From Anatilimnocola floriformis (GTDB taxonomy: Bacteria > Planctomycetota > Planctomycetia > Pirellulales > Pirellulaceae): a stretch of DNA of 64,000 nucleotides. Below, in pieces: positions 29,401-59,420 of the stretch; position 1 is the stretch's first letter, and each line of letters begins with the position of its first letter. Both the position numbers and the translations under genes were made by a program. Below the pieces are notes generated by a model. It was not told the DNA's origin. It ran no database searches and saw nothing but the letters and a program-made list of their open reading frames with translations. The DNA is taken from the NCBI RefSeq assembly GCF_024256385.1, contig NZ_JAMLFW010000001.1, forward strand, positions 2,294,001 to 2,358,000, in the 5' to 3' direction.

Positions 29401-29434
29401 AAAAAAGCCCGGCAACTTTCGTCGCCGGGCTTTC
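29401..29434 (-). terminator. Intrinsic terminator (copy within repeat A)
   Basis: AAGCCCGGC / GCCGGGCTT stem with a 10-nt loop. On the minus strand it is followed by six T. It lies ~210 bp beyond the metalloprotease stop and would end transcripts from 29648-31681. It is identical to the hairpin at 34329-34362 downstream of gap. Confidence 0.85.
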
Positions 29435-29491
29435 TTAAATCTGCAATCTGAAATCTGCAATCAAAGCGCCACGCGGAGCGTGGCGGCTACA

Positions 29492-29523
29492 CTACAGACC
29501 CTTCTTGGTCATCATGCTCAGCA
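29492..29523 (-). pseudogene. Vestige of gap 3' end (last ten codons)
   Basis: On the minus strand this stretch reads LSMMTKKGL-stop, against LSMMIKKGL-stop at the end of the intact gap gene (34422-34453). One base differs over 32. Nothing else of gap is present here. It marks the distal edge of the inserted cassette. Confidence 0.8.
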
Positions 29524-29647: not shown

Positions 29648-31681
29648 TTAACCGAGACTCTCGAACTTGGCTTGCAACGCCGAAAGTTCAAGAGGAGCAA
29701 TGCGCTTGTGGTGATTGTTGCTGGAGTGCATCTGTTCCACGGCCTGCAGGAGTTCTGCGCTACGATCAGGATCAAATCTTGCATAGGCAAGCGCCAGATT
29801 CGAGTAGAGAAGATTAGGCAAGGTTTGAGAAGCTGCGCGTTTTTTATGCTGCTTGCCAATGCCCAAAAGATCCTCTTCGAGAAAGGCCTGCTCATCTTTG
29901 CTGATGCCAGCACGGCGAACCTTGACCCGCGGCTCGCCGTTACGGTTGTCAATGATGCGTGCTGGCTTGAGCGAAACATAGTAACTGCAGCGCATCGCTT
30001 CTCGGTACAAGGGATGGGCCTTGCCTCGATAGATTTTACATTTTTCCAGTCGCTGCAAGTGTCCCAGCACTCGGTCGGTTCGTTGCGGAATTCCCCAAAC
30101 GGCTAAATAAGCGCCAGTTTCGTCATTCCAACCTTCCATCACGCCGCGTTCAATTTGGCGGTCTGGAAATCGAACACCGATCGTGAGCGGTTCGGAGGCG
30201 AGGAACGCGCCTTGCCACGAGAGCAGCGCCTGAATCCGGTATTTTCCCGGTTCGGTGAAGACAAATCCATTCGCGCCATAAGTCAGGTTGATGTTTTCGT
30301 AGATTGCAGGCCGCGAGGCGTTCAATTCACAACTGCGACTTTCCACGTCACGCCTTACGGCAGGTTGAAATCGCACCACGTGGCCGTTGGGCTTTTCGAT
30401 CAAGTACGTTGTCGTTCCTAGCGAGGGATTCAAAGCATCGGGTACTGGTTGGCTCTGCGGAGCGGATTTGAATTGCGGGCCTCTGAGTGACAATTTTGCT
30501 TCGATGTTGATTGGCTCGCCGAATTCAAAGAGCAACCGCTCGGGTCGCGTGCGCAGCTTCAATTCCAAACCAGTGACCTTAACCGGCTTGAGGTGATTGG
30601 CAATATCCTGTGAGCGCCCCGGTGGATCCGTGAAGCGATACCAGCCCATGACGACAGATTCCAGTCGGTTGTGATACAGATGATCGAGTTCTCGATCGGA
30701 AAAGCACAACGGAGCGCCTTCATAAGCCGGCCAATAGGCCTGATCTTTGCCTGGATAACGACTGGGGTAATTCATGCAAGAGCGAGAGGAGCAGTCGCTC
30801 GAGTCATCGGCTGCAAAAGGATGGACGAGATTAAAGACGTGCCCTAACTCATGTGTCGCCGTCCGGATAAAGTCGCGGCGAAAGTTGTCCAGGCCGCTGG
30901 ATCGTTCGCGGGCCCGCCAAAAGACGGCTGCCCCGCGGCGCTGAACGCGATCGCGAACATCAAACATAATCCCAGTCGTGTAAGGTCCTGCAGTGGCACG
31001 TTCACCCCGAAACCAAGGTGTAGCCAACAGGTACGCTCGCCAGGCGGGTTGCTGCGCTATTTCCGCGTATCGCGAAAAGTTGTCTTCCATCGCGCCCAAT
31101 AATTCTCCCTCGTCCCATTCGCTCTCCTCGCCACCAGCGACGGCGCCGATTGAGTCCTGACTCGAAGCGTGTTGCAGCGTGACCCCGGCCTTACGATAGT
31201 TTTCGGCCACGTCTTGCATGATTCCCCAAATCAAGGTTGCAGTTCCTGGGCTGGCTACTGCGTCAATCTCATAGGTGAGGGCGCGGAGTGCAGTCATCCA
31301 AAAATTCAGGTCGCCTTCGTAAGCCTGAGGCGACAAGGTATTCGTTGTCGTTAACTGAATCCGTAATTTGCTTTTCGGCGAATCTCCAGCTTGATGAACC
31401 TTAATGCTGATGCTTTGTTCGGGATTGGTTAGCAGCACTCCAGTTCCCACAAAGCCCTTGCCATCGGAGGCGGATTGTAAGGCACCCAGCGAGTAAAAGG
31501 AGCCATGAAAGGCTTCCACGTCCGGAAGCATAGGGTTGAAGTTGGCGAGGGAGATTCCTCGGAATATATCGCCGCTGATTCGCTCCGGCCGATTCGTATT
31601 GCCATTGCCAAATTCACAGCGCAACAGGAGCAAATCGGTACCAACCTTGCCGATGTAAGTCCCACGAGCTATCTGTAACAC
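29648..31681 (-). CDS. Metzincin-like zinc metalloprotease of unknown family
   Basis: A 677-residue protein. Residues 277-287 read HELGHVFNLVH, an HExxHxxxxxH zinc site with a third His. CMNY at 302-305 could be the Met-turn, so a metzincin fold is likely. The usual Gly of HExxHxxGxxH is Asn here. No N-terminal signal peptide or membrane helix is seen (it starts MLQIARGTYIGK), and I recognise no flanking domain. A beta-rich region follows (~370-500), then a charged helical C-terminus. Base composition is visibly more AT-rich than its surroundings. It lies in the cassette bounded by the gap repeats and is divergent from two paralogous lipoproteins. Confidence 0.65.
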   Translation of the reverse strand: MLQIARGTYIGKVGTDLLLLRCEFGNGNTNRPERISGDIFRGISLANFNPMLPDVEAFHGSFYSLGALQSASDGKGFVGTGVLLTNPEQSISIKVHQAGDSPKSKLRIQLTTTNTLSPQAYEGDLNFWMTALRALTYEIDAVASPGTATLIWGIMQDVAENYRKAGVTLQHASSQDSIGAVAGGEESEWDEGELLGAMEDNFSRYAEIAQQPAWRAYLLATPWFRGERATAGPYTTGIMFDVRDRVQRRGAAVFWRARERSSGLDNFRRDFIRTATHELGHVFNLVHPFAADDSSDCSSRSCMNYPSRYPGKDQAYWPAYEGAPLCFSDRELDHLYHNRLESVVMGWYRFTDPPGRSQDIANHLKPVKVTGLELKLRTRPERLLFEFGEPINIEAKLSLRGPQFKSAPQSQPVPDALNPSLGTTTYLIEKPNGHVVRFQPAVRRDVESRSCELNASRPAIYENINLTYGANGFVFTEPGKYRIQALLSWQGAFLASEPLTIGVRFPDRQIERGVMEGWNDETGAYLAVWGIPQRTDRVLGHLQRLEKCKIYRGKAHPLYREAMRCSYYVSLKPARIIDNRNGEPRVKVRRAGISKDEQAFLEEDLLGIGKQHKKRAASQTLPNLLYSNLALAYARFDPDRSAELLQAVEQMHSSNNHHKRIAPLELSALQAKFESLG

Positions 31682-31849
31682 GCTTCAGCTCCCAATTCAT
31701 CGCCAGCATTATCCGAAATTGCAATTGTTAAAGTGTAACGCACAAATCACTCGTTTTAAGGGGATTCATTGCACCTCAAAAGCTGCGTAGCCGATACAAA
31801 CAACCAATTCAAAATATGCTAATTCGACCAATGTGCCAGGGATTGTCAC

Positions 31850-33163
31850 ATGCGTTGGCTACTAATCGTGTGCTTGCTCTTGGGAGGTGGCTGTGCGGGC
31901 TTAACGGCTCGCAAAGTACCCTTGCAACATCGCCTCGCTGGTGTGGATAAGCAAAAGGGGTTTCGCTACTACCTCTCGCGCCCCTACATCGTGGTCAGCA
32001 AACGAATTCTGGTGCACCAGGATGTTTTGCCAGGAGTCCTACTGCAGAGAGACAAGTCGAAGGACCCCATGCCAATGGCTGGGCAAGTCCCTGCGGATGA
32101 CGTCACTGCCGATTTTGCGGTGCGACTAATTTTGGCGGATGGCAGTCAACGAACCGTTGACTTGGCAGGTCACGACAATCCGGCTGCGAAGGACTGGGAG
32201 CCGGCTAACCTATCTGCTGCAATGGGGATGGCCTCGATCTATGGAGCAGAAATTCCTGTCAGCTTTGCGGCGCAAGGTGATTTGGAATACTTGGAGTTTT
32301 ACCGCCTGCAGGATTTCCGCGCCGACCGTCAGGCTCTAACCGTTGCGGAGACACTGCAGAAGGAAATCCTGAAGACTGACGGCAAGATTGAAGAGGATCC
32401 AGCAATTCCCTCTTTCCAAGTTGCTCATTTGCCTGACTTCGAAGAGCAAATGGCGGTGAAACATCACGCATTCCTATCGACAAATAAATTCTCCATGCTG
32501 TTCCGCGACGGCTGGCAGCTCGACTCGCTCAAAAGTAACTCCGACACTACCGAAGTCCCAATTGCGATTCTCAAGACTTTGCAAAAAGCAATCGGTGCAG
32601 CCAGTTCTTTTGAACAAGAACGCTTGAAACGAGTTGCGGAGATTCAGGGAAAAGGAGGCGAAAACAAAGATGGCGGATCCAACGGAGCGGCCGCATTGGT
32701 TCCGCAGAGGATGGCAGGAGTGGTGCGATACTACATCGAGCCCGGCATGTATCGAGTCAATAAGGAGTCGGAGCGGACACCAGGATTGGACGAAGAAAGC
32801 CCCTGCGGTCTGCTGACGTCTTTCGGCCTGCCGATCGCCACCGACACCGAGATTTGGCAAGTCGCGAGTGGTAGTCAATTGGACAAGCTAGCAGCCGACA
32901 AGCGTCAGCTCGAACAGGATGTGAAAGATTGCAAGGACGCGAGGCAGAAACTCGAAGATGAACTTAAGAAGAAGAATAAGGGTGGCAACCAAAACCAAGG
33001 TGGCAACCAAAGTCCAGCACCTGCGGAACGGACGACTCCTCCGCTGCCTACGGATGGAATGGGTGCCCAAGTCTTACCGCGGCGTCTACCAACCCAACCC
33101 AGTCACGGGCAGTTGCAGCACCTGCAATTGCGGCCACCGGACGTGCTTCGGGTTGGCGATTGA
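31850..33163 (+). CDS. Lipoprotein of unknown family, first of two paralogues
   Basis: A 437-residue protein with a lipoprotein-type signal (MRWLLIVCLLLGGGCAG, Cys 15). It shares with the next gene the blocks GFRYYLSRPYIVVSKRI (~37), VAHLPDFEEQMAVKHHAFL (~190), LFRDGWQLDSL (~215) and YIEPGMYRVNK (~300). The C-terminal part has a predicted coiled coil (AADKRQLEQDVKDCKDARQ) and a Gln/Asn repeat (GGNQNQGGNQ). Family and function are unknown. It is AT-richer than the flanking DNA and sits 168 bp from the divergent metalloprotease. Confidence 0.6.
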   Translation: MRWLLIVCLLLGGGCAGLTARKVPLQHRLAGVDKQKGFRYYLSRPYIVVSKRILVHQDVLPGVLLQRDKSKDPMPMAGQVPADDVTADFAVRLILADGSQRTVDLAGHDNPAAKDWEPANLSAAMGMASIYGAEIPVSFAAQGDLEYLEFYRLQDFRADRQALTVAETLQKEILKTDGKIEEDPAIPSFQVAHLPDFEEQMAVKHHAFLSTNKFSMLFRDGWQLDSLKSNSDTTEVPIAILKTLQKAIGAASSFEQERLKRVAEIQGKGGENKDGGSNGAAALVPQRMAGVVRYYIEPGMYRVNKESERTPGLDEESPCGLLTSFGLPIATDTEIWQVASGSQLDKLAADKRQLEQDVKDCKDARQKLEDELKKKNKGGNQNQGGNQSPAPAERTTPPLPTDGMGAQVLPRRLPTQPSHGQLQHLQLRPPDVLRVGD

Positions 33164-33218
33164 ACTGTTGCGAGTCTTGTCCCTTTCCTTTGTCACATTA
33201 TGTCTGACAGGTGCGAAC

Positions 33219-34310
33219 ATGTTTCGTTGCGTATTCGCCGGTTTGCTTACGCTCGTCTTGTGCGGTTGCGCAAGTATGCAAGTCAATAAGATCACACAAT
33301 GTGATCGCGTGACTGGCGCCGACGAACACATCAAGGGTTTTCGCTATTACTTGGCGAGACCCTATGTCGTCGTCAAAAAGCGAATAAAGGTTTCACAGCA
33401 AGTTTCGCTGTTGGCCATTAACACGAAGGACACCTCCTGGGCGAAGGCATTCGTAGAGTCCTACGGTCGAAATCCTGCCGAGGCCTTGGCCTTGGTGCCC
33501 GCACAGTATGTGCGCCGATGTGAAACGAACAACGACGCGTTTGAGGCAGTTTCCGCTTCTGAATGGGAAGCGATGAAGAACCGGCTGCGGCCTGCCAAAA
33601 GTGATGTCCTGCCGGTATCGCATACCGAAAGCCTTGGAGCCATGAACCTGGCCAGCACTCTGCAAGCTGCTGCACCGGCCGCGGCAGTAGCGGCTCCGGT
33701 GCAGGGGCAAGTTGCAGCAAGCGCTGCGAAGCAGACCAGTGAGACTCGTCCCTCCGCCCCGCTTGCTGACGCCGAATGTCAAACGCCAGCTGGTCCGTCG
33801 GTGGCGTTGTCAGGCGACATTGAGGTGATCTTCCTGCCCGACATGGATGAACAATACGCAGTTCACAATCGTAATTTTCTCGCGAAGAGCAGTTACAACT
33901 TGCAATTTAAGGAAGGCTGGCAGTTGGCCGCGGTCAATGGTGAGTTTGATTCGACAGAGGTCGCGATTGAAGTGCTCAATACGATCGACTCCGCAATCGA
34001 AGCCGCCAAAAGTGTGGCGACCGCCCGCTTGCCGTTGCGTTATCCAACTCCACCAGCTCCGGGCGGCAACGCCGATAAGACAATTCCTCTAGCCGACTCA
34101 AAAGCAGGTCGCGAGATCGTGTTCCTCGAAGCACTCGCCGTCACCTACTTGCGTCCCGGCATCTACCGTGTGAACAAACCCTGGGAGATGGAAAATGGCA
34201 AGCCGGACTCGCCGGGGTTGCTGGCTCAAATGGGCTTGCCCACGGTAACTGATTATCGGGTGAAGCCGGCCGATTCACTACCAACGCAGCCGGAACTGGC
34301 AACCGAATAG
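33219..34310 (+). CDS. Lipoprotein of unknown family, second of two paralogues
   Basis: ATG 33219 gives 363 residues with a lipoprotein signal (MFRCVFAGLLTLVLCGCAS). The frame is open far upstream but overlaps the first paralogue, so that extension is rejected. Shared blocks are GFRYYLARPYVVVKKRI, IFLPDMDEQYAVHNRNFL, QFKEGWQLAAV and YLRPGIYRVNK. An Ala/Pro-rich insert near 150-190 is not in paralogue one. The gene is 55 bp downstream of its paralogue and so probably cotranscribed. It ends 18 bp before repeat B. Confidence 0.6.
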   Translation: MFRCVFAGLLTLVLCGCASMQVNKITQCDRVTGADEHIKGFRYYLARPYVVVKKRIKVSQQVSLLAINTKDTSWAKAFVESYGRNPAEALALVPAQYVRRCETNNDAFEAVSASEWEAMKNRLRPAKSDVLPVSHTESLGAMNLASTLQAAAPAAAVAAPVQGQVAASAAKQTSETRPSAPLADAECQTPAGPSVALSGDIEVIFLPDMDEQYAVHNRNFLAKSSYNLQFKEGWQLAAVNGEFDSTEVAIEVLNTIDSAIEAAKSVATARLPLRYPTPPAPGGNADKTIPLADSKAGREIVFLEALAVTYLRPGIYRVNKPWEMENGKPDSPGLLAQMGLPTVTDYRVKPADSLPTQPELATE

Positions 34311-34328: not shown

Positions 34329-35915
<1,587 letters not shown>

Positions 35916-42229: not shown

Positions 42230-42730
42230 ATGGACGAGACACCTCCCGCGGCGAACGAAGCGACCGCAACGAATCTGGCCACCGCCTATCATGAGGCGGG
42301 GCATGCGGTGATCGCGCTGGCGCTCGGCCGCAATGTGCAGCGCGTCAGCATTCTGCCGAACCAGCTGCGGCTGGGGCAGTGCGAACTGAAAAAGGGCCGA
42401 GCCAAACCGGCGCATGATCCATTGGAAGTGGAAGTTCTGATTCTGCTTGGCGGTGTCGCAGCCGAAGCGGTTTACACCGGCGAGTATGCTTGGGGCGGCG
42501 CTCAGCAGGACTTGCGAGCGGTGCGGGCGATGACCATGCAGCGGGCCGGAAATCAAAAGCAAGTCGAGCGACTCGAACGCCGGTTGCTCGACAAGGTCGA
42601 GTACTTACTCGCCGATCCAGCCACCTGGCGAGCCACTGAACTCATCGCGGCAGAGTTGCTGCGCTGCACGACTATCAGCGGCCGAGCGGCTAAGCATTTG
42701 TTTGAACAAGCGGCGGCGCAAGTGGAGTAG
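42230..42730 (+). CDS. Stand-alone FtsH-like (M41) peptidase domain
   Basis: A 166-residue protein. YHEAGHAVIALALG at ~20-33 carries the HExxH zinc site. GGVAAEAV at ~66 matches the FtsH peptidase signature. AQQDLRAVRAM at ~83 supplies the likely third metal ligand Asp. The AAA ATPase and membrane segments of FtsH are absent, so this is the bare protease fold. Whether it is active alone or works with a partner is unknown. Its TAG stop lies inside the palindrome 42727-42833. Confidence 0.75.
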   Translation: MDETPPAANEATATNLATAYHEAGHAVIALALGRNVQRVSILPNQLRLGQCELKKGRAKPAHDPLEVEVLILLGGVAAEAVYTGEYAWGGAQQDLRAVRAMTMQRAGNQKQVERLERRLLDKVEYLLADPATWRATELIAAELLRCTTISGRAAKHLFEQAAAQVE

Positions 42731-42833
42731 GCCAGAACAAGCGGTACCCCGCACAGTTCCGGCATGAACTGCAGAGTGACGTCACGCCCGCGGTCTGCCG
42801 GAACAGCGCGGAGTACCGCTCGTTCCGGCCTAC
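42727..42833. repeat. Long imperfect palindromic repeat
   Basis: A 107-bp element with ends GTAGGCC (42727) and GGCCTAC (42833) and internal paired blocks including GAACAAGCGGTACC and GGAGTACCGCTCGTTC. The left end contains the TAG stop of the M41-like gene and the right end lies 10 bp from the stop of the convergent gene. It has the same GTAG...CTAC boundary style as the repeats at 419-490 and 43273-43343. Confidence 0.75.
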
Positions 42834-43247: not shown

Positions 43248-43272
43248 GAGTACTTTCTGGGATGGTTTGAAA

Positions 43273-43343
43273 GTAGCTGAATTCGCCAGAATTCAGATCG
43301 TGACCTCGCAACGACGGCCCTGAATTCTGGCGAATTCAGCTAC
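43273..43343. repeat. Palindromic repeat element, copy 2 (23-bp arms)
   Basis: The arms at 43273-43295 and 43321-43343 are identical in sequence to those at 419-441 and 468-490. The 25-bp loop differs from copy 1 (26 bp). It lies between two minus-strand genes, 26 bp upstream of the secreted-protein start. Confidence 0.85.
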
Positions 43344-53130: not shown

Positions 53131-53245
53131 CCCTCGCCCCTGTACTCAGGGGAGAGGGTTAGGGTGAGGGGCCGAACTGCAAGTGGACGTCAATCCTGCT
53201 TCAGCCCCTCACCCCGGCCCTCTCCCCTGAGTACAGGGGCGAGGG
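53131..53245. repeat. Large inverted repeat with 28-bp perfect arms
   Basis: Arms 53131-53158 and 53218-53245 are exact reverse complements over 28 bp (each ends in CCCTC/GAGGG) and pair further inward with a few mismatches (GGGTGAGGGGC / GCCCCTCACCC). The loop is about 30-45 bp. It lies between the synthase start and the pheA stop. The TAACCCTCTCCCC-type sequence is a common intergenic repeat class in several bacterial genomes. Confidence 0.85.
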
Positions 53246-55061: not shown

Positions 55062-56999
55062 ATGGCAGCTGGCGAAAAAATCATTGGCATCGACCTGGGT
55101 ACGACGAACTCTGTCGTTGCGATCATGGAAGGGTCCGAACCCAAAGTGATCGCTAATGCGGAAGGCAATCGCCTCACGCCCAGCGTCGTCGGTTTTACGG
55201 ATAAAGGGGAGACGGTCGTTGGCGAACCGGCCAAACGGCAAGCCGTGACCAACCCCACCAAGACCGTGTACTCGGTCAAACGCTTCATGGGCCGTCGTCA
55301 CTCGGAAGTTGAATCCGAAGAGAAGATGGTTCCCTATAAGGTGACCGGCGGCTCGCAAGAGTACGTGAAGATCAAGGTCGGCGAAAAAGAAATGACGCCG
55401 CAAGAGATCTCCGCGCTCGTCCTGCGTAAGCTGAAGGAAGCGGCCGAGGCTTACCTGGGTCACAAGGTGAATAAAGCCGTGATCACTGTTCCGGCTTACT
55501 TCAACGATGCCCAACGGCAAGCGACGAAGGACGCTGGTCAGATCGCCGGTCTCGAAGTCGCTCGTATCATCAACGAACCGACCGCGGCCGCGCTGGCTTA
55601 TGGCCTCGACAAGAAGAAGAACGAAAAGATCGTCGTGTTCGATCTCGGTGGCGGTACGTTCGACGTCTCCGTCCTCGAAGTGGTCGGCAGCGATGAAGAT
55701 GGCGGCGGCAAGCAACTGTTCCAGGTCATCAGCACCAACGGTGATACGCACCTCGGTGGTGACGACTTCGATGAAGCCCTGATCCACTACGTGGCCGGCG
55801 AGTTCCAAAAGGAACAAGGCGTCGACCTGCGTAAGGATCCGATGGCGCTGCAACGTCTGCAGGAAGCCTGCGAAAAGGCGAAGAAGGAACTGAGCTCGTT
55901 GCCGTCGACCGACATCAACCTGCCGTTTATCACGATGGCTGGTGGCGTGCCGAAGCACTTGACGATGACCATCACGCGTTCGAAGTTCGAAGAGCTGACC
56001 GATTCGCTGATCGAGCGCTGCCGCAAGCCAGTGCTGCAAGCGATGAAGGACGCCAACCTGAAGCCGGGCGACATCGACGAAGTCGTGCTCGTCGGCGGTA
56101 GCACGCGTATTCCGAAGGTGCAGAAGCTCGTCAAAGACGTCTTCGGCAAGGATCCGCACAAGGGTGTGAATCCCGACGAAGTGGTCGCGGTAGGCGCTGC
56201 CATTCAGGCGAGCGTGCTGGCCGGCGAACGCAAGGACGTGCTGTTGCTCGACGTTACCCCGCTGACTCTCGGCATCGAAACCGAAGGTAGCGTGATGACG
56301 GCGATCGTCGAAAAGAACACCACCATTCCGTTCAAGTCCCAGAAGGAATTCAGCACGGCCGCCGACAGCCAGTCGAGCGTGCAAGTGCGTGTGTTCCAAG
56401 GCGAACGGAAGATGGCGACTGACAACCGGTTGCTGGGCGAGTTCAATCTCGACGGCATTCCGCCGGCCCCGCGTGGCATGCCGCGCATTCAAGTGACGTT
56501 CGACATCGACGCGAACGGCATCTTGGATGTTTCGGCCCGCGAAATGGGAACCGGCAAACAAGCGAACGTGCGGATCGAGCAATCGTCGGGCTTGTCGAAA
56601 GACGAGATCGAAAAGATGCGTCGCGACGCCGAAGCGCATGCCGACGAGGACAAGCAACGGCTTGAACTCGCGAACCTGCGGAACCAGGCCGACAACATGT
56701 GCTACTCGCTCGAGAAGCTCATGAAGGAAAACGCCGACAAGCTGCAGGACAGCGACAAAGAACCGTTGCAAAAGGCCATCGACAGCACTCGCGAAAAAGC
56801 CAAGGGGACCGATGTGGCGGCTATCAAGTCGGCCGTCGAAAGCCTCGAAGCTGCTTCGCATGCCTTCAGCAAGATGCTGTACGAAAAGACCGGCGCTGCT
56901 GGCGGCGAAGGCGCCGAAGGCGGTCCTGCCCCCGGCCCGCAAGCCAGCAAGAAGGGTGACGACGACGTCATCGAAGGCGAGTTCGAAGTGAAGAAGTAA
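55062..56999 (+). CDS. dnaK: Molecular chaperone DnaK (Hsp70)
   Basis: A 645-residue Hsp70. ATPase motifs are [14 protein letters not shown] (7-20), [15 protein letters not shown] (in part), [25 protein letters not shown] and [13 protein letters not shown]. The substrate-binding domain begins with the linker [18 protein letters not shown] (in part) and ends with EGEFEVKK. It folds proteins with ATP and J-domain and nucleotide-exchange partners, which are not in the window. Two hairpins lie after the stop. A decayed copy of the 3' end lies at 57962-58158. Confidence 0.97.
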
Positions 57000-57031
57000 G
57001 TAGGCGAAGTCACTCCGTGACTCGCAACACT

Positions 57032-57096
57032 GGTTCGGCCGCTTGAGGCCGAACCTAAAACCAAACCCGCCCGCTCGGCCAAACCGTGGCGGGCGG
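57032..57096 (+). terminator. Double hairpin downstream of dnaK
   Basis: GGTTCGGCC / GGCCGAACC with a 6-nt loop spans 57032-57055. A second hairpin CCGCCCGC / GCGGGCGG spans 57067-57096 and is followed by TTGTGTTTCTT. The second is the better terminator candidate. On the opposite strand it could end the hypothetical gene that stops at 57117. Confidence 0.65.
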
Positions 57097-57116
57097 TTGT
57101 GTTTCTTGCCAGTCAA

Positions 57117-57872
57117 CTAATAGATAACCAACTTCCCCGCCGGCCATTCACCAATCCACCCGCAGGGAAAGTGTCCCGCTTCGTAGACTAAAAGCAGTTC
57201 GTGGAAGAAGAAGCAGCGGTGTCCGGTGCTGAGGTACGATTCTTCGGTGAGCGCGAGCAGGATATCCCACTTAATGGTGTGCAAGAGTTCGTCCGGCAGA
57301 TTGCGGGAGTCGAAGCACGGCTTCCAATGCGTGTCGATCAATGACGCCAAGATTACTTTGTGCTGATCGACTCGGTTATTCCATTCCTGAAATTCTTTGC
57401 GTGCATGGACGTGTAACCAACCTGAGAGTTGATTCCGGGCTTCAAGTTGGGCGTTCTCCCACTCAGCCTCCTGACACGAGGCAACCGCTTCCTTCCAACT
57501 GGCGACTTGCACCACTGGCATCGTCAAATCGAGCACTGCCGGCTTTCCGCAGTTCGCAAACCAATCGATCGCTTTAAGCCGTTCGGCAATGTCCGTCTTG
57601 GCGAACTGATGCTTGGAAACGAAGTCATTCGATTGCGGCTCGTAGACGCGTTTGCTTTGCAACGTCAGAAACTCCTCCATCTCCGCAGGAGTGAGCTGCT
57701 TCTTCGCGAGCAGTTCGGCCAGTCGTTCATTGGTTGATTGCTTCATCGCTAAACGCCTCTGCTTGCTAAATTTTCCCTGCTCTTCTTCGCCTCGAAGATA
57801 GAAGTACGCGACCGATCCTCCGGCCGCGAGCAGTGCAGCAGCAGCGATCAATAGCTTGCGACGAGTCGACAT
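57117..57872 (-). CDS. Membrane-anchored protein of unknown function in a cassette next to dnaK
   Basis: A 251-residue protein with an N-terminal membrane segment (MSTRRKLLIAAAALLAAGGSVAYFYL region, residues ~7-26) and a long soluble part. Charged helices from ~35-90 are followed by alpha/beta stretches with Trp and Cys (WFANCGKPAVLDLT, GHRCFFFHELLLVYEAGHFPCG). No family is recognised. It lies alone between the true end of dnaK and a degenerate copy of that end, and its base use is less GC-rich than dnaK. It may be horizontally acquired. Confidence 0.6.
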   Translation of the reverse strand: MSTRRKLLIAAAALLAAGGSVAYFYLRGEEEQGKFSKQRRLAMKQSTNERLAELLAKKQLTPAEMEEFLTLQSKRVYEPQSNDFVSKHQFAKTDIAERLKAIDWFANCGKPAVLDLTMPVVQVASWKEAVASCQEAEWENAQLEARNQLSGWLHVHARKEFQEWNNRVDQHKVILASLIDTHWKPCFDSRNLPDELLHTIKWDILLALTEESYLSTGHRCFFFHELLLVYEAGHFPCGWIGEWPAGKLVIY

Positions 57873-57961
57873 GTAGTCCGGGATTGCATGAGAGTTTTGG
57901 ATAGTTCTTCGCGACGTGTGACCAAAGTTGTCCGGCGATGGATTTCAATTACTAGTACTTT

Positions 57962-58158
57962 AACCAGGCCGACGAAGTGTGCTACTCGCTTGAGAAACTT
58001 TTGAACGAGAACGCCACAAGGCTCATGACAGCGACGGAGATCAGAAACGCCGAAGCTGCTGTGGCCCTGCTCCTGGCCAGCAAGAAGGCAACTACGACGT
58101 CGGCGAAGGGGAGTTTGAAGTCAAGAAATAACGAAGGCGAGTCACTCGGTGACTCGCC
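57962..58158 (+). pseudogene. Degenerate copy of the dnaK 3' end
   Basis: From 57962 the sequence aligns to dnaK 56682 onward (NQAD..CYSLEKL), diverging over ~80 bp, then skips ~150 bp of dnaK and resumes at the segment matching [17 protein letters not shown]. One base has been lost near 58088, so the last part ([12 protein letters not shown], then TAA at 58129-58131) is in another frame. Homology continues past the stop through the GCGAGTCAC / GTGACTCGC hairpin to ~58158. The first part is readable as a short frame starting CYSLEKL but is not a gene. Confidence 0.85.
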
Positions 58159-58194
58159 ACGTTTGAATCTAGCGATAGTCGCAATGCTCGCTGA

Positions 58195-58881
58195 CTAGCG
58201 GCCAACCGAGATGCCCCAGTGGACACTGCCCGGCGGCGGACCACGGTGGTAGTGATTGTGGTAATAAGGTCCGCCCCAGTAGTAAGGAGGCGGCGGCGGA
58301 TAGTACGCCGGGTAGACGTGCTCGACGACCACGGGGCGAGCCACCGGCGGCGGAGGAATCGCGGCCGAGTAAGCCGCGTTGTAGCGGGCTTGCGAGGTCG
58401 GAGCTTGCTGCATGGCTTGCAGCACCGAGTCCGACACGCCTTGGTTGCGGAGATAGATGAGGTCGTTGACCTGCAGCTGCTGTGTCACGCCGTTGGCGCG
58501 CACGTGGCTGGCGATCACATCTTCGCTGAGACCAGCGCGGGACATGGCGACTACATCTTGCGGAGTGACAGCGCCCTTTACAGCTTGAGCACCAGCACCT
58601 TGAGCGTAGCCTTGTTGAGCCGCTTGTTGCGTGGCAACAGCGCGGTCGTTATCGATTCCTTCGCCGACGGCATTGCCGGCAATCGCGCCGATCGCGCCAC
58701 CGATCAAGCCACCAGCGAGAGCGTTCTGGCTCTTGTTGCCGATGGCGGCGCCGAGGCCAGCGCCACCGAGGCCGCCAAGGATCGTGCCGTTGCGTTGATA
58801 GTTCGGCGTTTGGCAACCGCCCGACACTGTGGTGGTGAGGGTCACGCCAATGGCGAGGACAATAATGATGAGCGACTTCAT
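58195..58881 (-). CDS. Glycine-zipper lipoprotein
   Basis: ATG 58881 gives 228 residues with a lipoprotein signal (MKSLIIIVLAIGVTLTTTVSG) and lipobox SGGC (Cys ~23). A glycine-zipper segment follows (GGLGGAGLGAAIGN and GGLIGGAIGAIAGNAVG, ~40-75), common in outer-membrane-associated proteins. A middle helical part (~105-150) precedes a Pro/Tyr/His-rich tail (PPPPPYYWGGPYYHN). A structural envelope role is likely, but the function is not established. Confidence 0.7.
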   Translation of the reverse strand: MKSLIIIVLAIGVTLTTTVSGGCQTPNYQRNGTILGGLGGAGLGAAIGNKSQNALAGGLIGGAIGAIAGNAVGEGIDNDRAVATQQAAQQGYAQGAGAQAVKGAVTPQDVVAMSRAGLSEDVIASHVRANGVTQQLQVNDLIYLRNQGVSDSVLQAMQQAPTSQARYNAAYSAAIPPPPVARPVVVEHVYPAYYPPPPPYYWGGPYYHNHYHRGPPPGSVHWGISVGR

Positions 58882-59420
58882 GTCTGCTTCTCGCTTCGAA
58901 ATCCGTGACAATCGAGAATCGTCTATTACCGACATCCGGCACCTTGTTCGCTAGCAAACCAACGAGCATTTGCAGGGTTGCAAATCGTCGTCTTTGCGGA
59001 CTGGCGAGTCAAGGTGAAATAGCGGTTCGGCAGTAGCGTTTCAAATTTCTGCTAGCGGCGAACCAGGCGAGCAGGATGCTCCTCCTTATGTATCGACGCG
59101 GTCGAACCTCAGAGACCAATCCGGAATGACGGATTTGACGAGGCGCGGTTGCGAAAAGTGGTGGAGTGACAGCAGTAGTATTGCTGGCGCAGAAATAACT
59201 TCAGCGGCGATCGCTATGGAGGCGGTTGTGCAGTCTCGGTAGACTCTGCCGGCTCGCGGGTAGTCTGCGGACTCGGCAGTCCGTGCCACGGGTTCGTTTG
59301 TTTCCTTAGAAAACGGTTGTAGCTGGTCGAAGGATTATTTCGGGGAGCGGCCTCTTATTCATGTAAGAGTTCACTCAATGCCCGGTACTTGCTCTAGGTT
59401 CCACCTCGGGCGGTAGCGGC
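58882..59420. other. Noncoding region between divergent genes
   Basis: The 539-bp spacer separates the glycine-zipper lipoprotein (minus) from the DUF1207 gene (plus). No credible gene was found. It contains a CTGCCG / CGGCAG hairpin near 59248-59277 and probably promoters for both genes. Confidence 0.55.

What the first reader, a model, noticed from the sequence alone, without database searches (positions are those of the whole stretch)
56682..58158. Second case: a cassette between real dnaK and a decayed dnaK 3' end
After the true dnaK stop come a single unknown gene (57117-57872) and then a degraded copy of the dnaK 3' end (57962-58158), including the stop and the palindrome beyond it. The remnant has lost ~150 bp and one further base. 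The arrangement mirrors that at gap: intact gene, cargo, displaced 3' end. Two unrelated housekeeping genes showing the same pattern within 25 kb suggests one mechanism.
Basis: partly seen in the sequence, partly recalled or inferred. Interest (0 to 1): 0.85.

Follow-up and report, generated by a model that had tools for sequence, protein, structure and literature searches.

The report
Duplicated dnaK tail behind acquired gene
Behind the heat-shock gene dnaK of this planctomycete lie one accessory gene and then a decayed copy of dnaK's last stretch, most likely the scar of foreign DNA that was added by recombination anchored in the dnaK 3' end; a similar layout occurs at a few other genes of the genome.

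Summary
Intact dnaK (55062-56999) is followed by one gene (57117-57872, on the minus strand) and a decayed copy of the dnaK 3' end (57962-58160, blocks of 81% and 83% identity, about 146 bp net loss). The palindrome after both stops is a dispersed GTAG/REP-type repeat. The only congener held, G001, has no cargo, no such repeat and no remnant at dnaK; polarised against it, the remnant arose after the two species split and decayed like a pseudogene. A survey of 2.4 Mb of the 8.9-Mb genome (1604 called genes) gave two more non-transposon candidates besides dnaK and gap, one good and one weaker. In all four the DNA between the tails is AT-rich, the shared segment ends at or soon after the gene end, and no second cargo copy follows. 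This favours additive (one-sided or Campbell-type) homologous integration of accessory DNA over tandem duplication; E. coli conjugation experiments gave partial gene duplications of this geometry. I found no integrase in the two window cargoes and saw no common boundary motif by eye; the dnaK and gap events differ in age. Probably a recurrent by-product of ordinary recombination, not a new system.

The parts
55062..56999 (+). intact dnaK, 645 aa
   Evidence: 93% identical to G001 DnaK
56682..57028 (+). part of the dnaK 3' end plus repeat that is represented in the remnant
57000..57039 (+). GTAG-type REP palindrome starting at the base after the dnaK stop; dispersed in this genome, not after dnaK in G001
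57117..57872 (-). cargo gene, 251 aa; N-terminal hydrophobic segment (by eye); C-terminal PCGW motif; patchy family; low GC
57962..58160 (+). decayed copy of the dnaK 3' end with stop and REP palindrome
58195..58935 (-). glycine-zipper gene beyond the scar; its G001 counterpart lies about 1.1 Mb from dnaK, with no remnant in the 1.5 kb on either side
34422..35516 (-). companion case: intact gap
29648..34310 (.). companion case: AT-rich cargo, one metallopeptidase-like gene (-; Pfam match below cut-off) and two genes without Pfam match (+)
29401..29523 (-). companion case: displaced gap 3' end (last 9 codons, stop, palindrome, terminator)

Best explanation
A piece of accessory DNA carrying a dnaK 3' end followed by the cargo gene, from a close relative or excised from one, was added to the chromosome by homologous recombination in the dnaK 3' end. 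Its other end was either joined illegitimately or closed as a circle (Campbell-type single crossover). The result is a complete dnaK followed by the newcomer's neighbour gene, and then a truncated, redundant dnaK tail still attached to the old downstream DNA. The tail has since decayed without constraint. Shown: geometry, decay, timing after the split from G001, absence of the cargo in G001, AT-rich insert, homology that ends near the gene end, no second cargo copy. Inferred: the recombination route, the donor, and which flank is the old one.
For: The shared segment ends 29 bp after the stop at dnaK, just after the terminator at gap, at the stop in the kinase-WD40 gene, and at C2:54.3 kb within about 115 bp after the stop, the strong block there ending at the stop. 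No second cargo copy lies within 5 kb beyond the displaced tail in any of the four. That is expected if two homologous gene ends with different neighbours met. The DNA between the tails is AT-rich: 212 (dnaK), 87 (gap), 163 (C2) and 23 (WD40) of 5000 random stretches of equal length are as low. Cargo CDS GC is at the 2.4th percentile of 1192 genes. Cargo absent from G001 and patchy: 9 of 60 genomes including the own, 11 of 294 including the own. Polarised changes by codon position: intact branch 0/0/4, remnant branch 6/1/6; the remnant shares 12 sites with own dnaK against 4 with G001. Precedent: in E. coli conjugation 56 of 60 exceptional clones gave the PCR product of a partial duplication of the target gene, 14 sequenced with 109-950 bp, explained by single crossover of a circle (PMC3240628, one section read).
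Against: Only one congener was available, so neither donor nor true empty site was seen; G001 downstream order differs, so which flank is native cannot be told. Third-position divergence from G001 is flat along dnaK (0.31-0.41 in full blocks), although overall divergence is highest in the last block, 0.204: no clear mosaic. A 28-bp match between DNA just after intact dnaK and the G001 dnaK 3' flank (2 of 1000 shuffles as good) hints that this flank is native, which fits the model poorly; the matching bases lie in the repeat, and 57030-57125 alone gives 132 of 1000. By third-position GC the cargo is only at the 14th percentile. The random stretches are mostly coding, so part of the AT-richness may just be intergenic DNA, above all in the WD40 case, where no gene was called.
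Confidence: 0.47

Rival explanations
1. Ordinary tandem duplication of a block from within dnaK to beyond the cargo, followed by deletion of the second cargo copy and decay of the second tail.
For: Direct orientation and short distance; a decayed tandem copy of a whole gene does occur in the genome, at C1:3158009-3159307.
Against: Needs the second cargo copy to vanish right at the tail end in each case; none was found within 5 kb in four cases. The cargo is AT-rich and missing in the congener, so it had to arrive or be lost in any case.
Confidence: 0.27
2. Relic of a genomic island that integrated site-specifically at the 3' end of dnaK, restored the gene with its own tail and later lost its integrase.
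For: The geometry is the one such islands leave (recalled, from no call); patchy AT-rich cargo.
Against: No integrase among the four cargo genes of dnaK and gap (Pfam); unrelated target genes; no common core seen by eye.
Confidence: 0.12
3. REP/RAYT-mediated mobilisation: the segment bounded by the two palindromes moved as a unit through a Y1 transposase of the genome.
For: dnaK and gap tails both carry a GTAG-type palindrome directly after the stop; 10 Y1_Tnp matches in the genome. Repeats of the gap tail lie 0.5 kb and 1.2 kb from two of these ten (C2:1665432 and C1:783423), against roughly 0.15 expected by my estimate. One cargo relative, L012, has a Y1 transposase beside it.
Against: The 4 of 10 Y1 loci fetched hold none of three repeat patterns at up to two substitutions; the two repeat-bearing ones were not fetched. 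The C2 and WD40 cases have no dispersed repeat within 60 bp of the stop, though that test also missed gap; 99 of 1519 genes have one. Such repeats sit after genes in general (PMC3733652, passages).
Confidence: 0.08

Closest known systems
Partial gene duplication by single-crossover integration of a non-replicating circle, and homology-facilitated illegitimate recombination (PMC3240628, abstract, passages and one section seen)
   Same: Direct repeat of part of the target gene on both sides of incoming DNA; 109-950 bp there, about 80-350 bp here
   Different: Laboratory plasmid under selection there; here an old natural scar with unknown donor, and the gene stays whole
Genomic islands integrated at 3' ends of protein genes (recalled, e.g. 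e14 in icd)
   Same: Gene end restored, original end displaced to the far side
   Different: No integrase found, no common short core seen, unrelated targets
GTAG-tagged REP palindromes and RAYTs (PMC3733652, passages seen)
   Same: GTAG at the edge, palindromic stem, dispersed, inverted pairs, directly after stop codons
   Different: A component of the scar, not shown to have moved the cargo

Membership tests
Scar of additive (one-sided or Campbell-type) homologous integration | Direct duplication of part of the target gene flanking the insert | tested here: met
Scar of additive (one-sided or Campbell-type) homologous integration | No second copy of the insert beyond the displaced tail | tested here: met
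   none within 5 kb in four cases
Scar of additive (one-sided or Campbell-type) homologous integration | Empty site without insert and duplication in a close relative | tested here: inconclusive
   G001 dnaK has neither, but its downstream genes differ
Scar of additive (one-sided or Campbell-type) homologous integration | Donor sequence with a dnaK tail joined to the cargo | tested here: not met
   no dnaK in any of 23 loci of cargo relatives, each with at most about 1.5 kb of flank; no further species of the genus among the genomes listed
GTAG-type REP | GTAG at one edge, palindromic stem, dispersed copies, inverted pairs | tested here: met
   definition from PMC3733652 passages
GTAG-type REP | RAYT gene flanked by the same repeat | tested here: inconclusive
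   dnaK-type repeat: none in 4 of 10 Y1 loci fetched; gap-tail repeats near 2 of 10
Site-specific genomic island | integrase within the insert | tested here: not met
   (four cargo genes of two cases)
Polymorphic-toxin immunity protein (cargo) | gene directly beside a toxin gene | tested here: inconclusive
   not so for the window copy; of 23 relative loci the neighbours of five were scanned: L012 overlaps an AHH nuclease gene, L009 precedes an RHS-repeat ORF, the other three show neither

The most novel reading that the evidence does not exclude
This genome uses the 3' ends of conserved genes as recurrent landing places where AT-rich accessory genes are added by a palindrome-assisted process that leaves displaced gene tails.
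Probability: 0.08. Interest if true: 0.6.

Novelty: new member of a known kind. Interest (0 to 1): 0.3.

Why it matters
Displaced gene tails give a readable, roughly datable record of how accessory genes entered a planctomycete genome beside highly conserved genes. With more species of the genus, donors and recombination route could be read directly. The cargo family, patchy and in two relatives beside toxin-type genes, is a candidate orphan immunity gene.

Tried and rejected
A second dnaK as the source of the remnant: the genome has one dnaK at E<=1e-100, and apart from the repeat and matches at E>=0.08 nothing else matches the tail (40 of 66 candidates were scored). A remnant older than the split from G001: speaks against it that sites are shared 12 to 4 (37 to 19 over all columns) and that the repeat is in both tails but not after G001 dnaK. 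A cargo relative fused to a transposase in L002, read by eye and noted in my notebook: Pfam did not support it, dropped. Enrichment of tails: kept rows (at least 25 coding bases in the query, target under half coding) were, of all rows, tails downstream direct 13 of 61, upstream direct 3 of 45, downstream inverted 0 of 88, upstream inverted 4 of 22; heads upstream direct 4 of 43, downstream direct 10 of 33, upstream inverted 10 of 52, downstream inverted 4 of 13. Mid-gene control, 783 genes: non-coding direct hits 3 downstream and 1 upstream. Too few to claim that tails are special. The 13 kept tail rows: dnaK 2, gap 1, kinase-WD40 gene 1, C2 144-aa gene 1, a transposase 1, a gene with a decayed whole copy 1, a 110-aa ORF near a transposase 1, and 5 not followed (two at 2016 kb; 2448590, 4353026 and C2:184681, 27-31 bp each). 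A direct pair (2531227/2533804) was not followed either. No structure prediction was made. Paper searches returned no paper; 57 and 59 were seen as listings.

Full report
What is there. The window lies in G000 (8.93 Mb, 17 contigs). The nearest named matches to its DnaK C-terminus are two Pirellulaceae MAGs at 52-57%. dnaK 55062-56999 is intact. A decayed copy of its 3' end lies at 57962-58160: two blocks of 81% and 83% identity, E 4e-12 and 8e-15; the gapped alignment scores 141 against at most 30.2 in 500 simple shuffles. About 146 bp net and at least two single bases are lost. The gene in between (57117-57872) runs on the minus strand.

The palindrome. The 40 bases from 57000, beginning GTAG directly after the stop, recur through the genome: of 45 matches listed to the dnaK tail, 31 by my count are to this stretch only (40 of 66 candidates scored). 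A pattern scan with up to two mismatches found 19 places, the remnant's own among them, many in inverted pairs about 100 bp apart. The core occurs in the congener too (forward matches: G000 16, G001 3) and in 0 of the 28 other genomes searched. This fits the GTAG superfamily of REPs, described as lying mostly downstream of coding regions and as present in Planctomycetes among others (PMC3733652, passages). The gap tail carries another palindrome, with TGTAG directly after its stop (sequence), dispersed as well.

Age and decay. In the congener G001, dnaK ends in different DNA, without this repeat, cargo or remnant, and the gene beyond the scar lies about 1.1 Mb away there with no remnant in its 1.5-kb flanks. 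In 125 coding columns aligned between dnaK, remnant and G001, the remnant shares 12 sites with its own dnaK against G001 and 4 with G001 against dnaK. Changes fall 0/0/4 by codon position on the intact branch and 6/1/6 on the remnant branch. So the duplication is younger than the split of the two species, and the copy has evolved without much constraint. The gap pair has 1 mismatch in its first 57 aligned columns, with indels further on: a younger, separate event.

Cargo. The 251-aa protein has no Pfam or NCBIfam match above cut-off and the 11-member profile finds no solved structure (best E 0.75). Relatives are patchy: 9 of 60 genomes including the own, 11 of 294 including the own, and one conjugative plasmid of Komagataeibacter at 29% identity. 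PCGW is invariant in the 11 aligned. Of five relatives whose neighbours I scanned, one overlaps an AHH nuclease toxin gene (L012) and one precedes an RHS-repeat ORF (L009); that the family acts as immunity proteins is inference, and the window copy is an orphan. Its GC is at the 2.4th percentile of 1192 genes, third-position GC at the 14th; the gap cargo genes stand at 3.4, 4.4 and 9.7. The gap metallopeptidase-like gene (Pfam below cut-off) was found in 1 of 36 genomes, the own.

Survey. I fetched 2.4 Mb of G000, called 1604 genes with a dicodon model and compared each gene's last 300 bp plus 60 bp with the next 10 kb. Of 61 direct downstream rows 13 passed the filter. Besides dnaK and gap two non-transposon candidates stand out: C2:53913-54347, whose tail recurs at 56212 right after a 560-aa leucine-rich-repeat gene, and C1:2505979-2508246, a kinase-WD40 gene with an 81-bp copy up to the stop 0.55 kb away. 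The second is weaker, because WD40 repeats are easily shared between paralogues. The DNA between the tails is AT-rich in all four (212, 87, 163 and 23 of 5000 random stretches as low; a transposase pair, for comparison, 609), and no second copy of the intervening DNA lies within 5 kb beyond. The mid-gene and gene-head controls are too close in number to claim that tails are special. Among 30 dnaK loci of 30 genomes, the own included, only the own shows a dnaK tail copy of 75 bp or more within the 0.2-1.5 kb held downstream; one locus gave no readable dnaK, two gave matches of 18-29 bp. G001 gap has no tail copy in 1.4 kb.

Interpretation. If a block had been duplicated in tandem, homology should run on from the tail into a second cargo; instead it ends at or soon after the gene end. 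Homology that stops at the gene end while the neighbours differ is what recombination between two orthologous gene ends gives. I therefore favour additive integration anchored in the gene end. In E. coli, 56 of 60 exceptional conjugation clones gave the signature of a partial duplication of the target gene (14 sequenced, 109-950 bp), explained by single crossover with a circle, and 4 were homology-facilitated illegitimate recombination (PMC3240628, section 12). Against it: one congener only, no donor (no dnaK in 23 loci of cargo relatives), no clear mosaic in dnaK, and a weak hint that the flank after intact dnaK is native. A REP/RAYT route stays open: repeats of the gap tail lie near two of the ten Y1 transposase genes, though not at the four loci read.

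Verdict. A real, well-formed scar with one good sibling in the window, one good and one weaker candidate in the rest of a 27% sample of the genome; best explained by known recombination; worth keeping as a marker of gene acquisition, not as a new mechanism.

Noticed in passing
L113-L114, G000 C1:1977798-1984955: A transposase gene (rve_3) whose last ~450 bp recur 6 kb downstream beyond an 1813-aa ORF: looks like two copies of one insertion sequence around a gene.
   Followed up: partly
L114, G000 C1:1994359-1998150: The start of a related transposase gene recurs 3.6 kb upstream, the mirror arrangement.
   Followed up: partly
window 53131-53245, 42727-42833, 418-491 and 43272-43343: Long self-complementary stretches, the last two related to each other; probably other dispersed palindromic elements.
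   Followed up: no
window 31850-33163 and 33219-34310: The two plus-strand gap cargo genes look like diverged paralogues, sharing a KGFRYYLxRPYxVVxKRI stretch (by eye).
   Followed up: no
L012 457-3164: Relative of the cargo gene overlaps an AHH nuclease toxin gene and has a Y1 transposase on its other side.
   Followed up: partly
G000 C1:3156868-3159307: A 432-aa gene with a decayed copy about 1.2 kb downstream matching head, middle and tail.
   Followed up: no
G000 C2:1664657-1665460 and C1:783423-785051: Y1 transposase genes with repeats of the gap tail 0.5 and 1.2 kb away.
   Followed up: no
G000 C1:2531227-2533894: A 91-bp direct repeat, 87%, covering the stop of a 155-aa ORF, 2.6 kb apart; a further possible displaced tail.
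   Followed up: no
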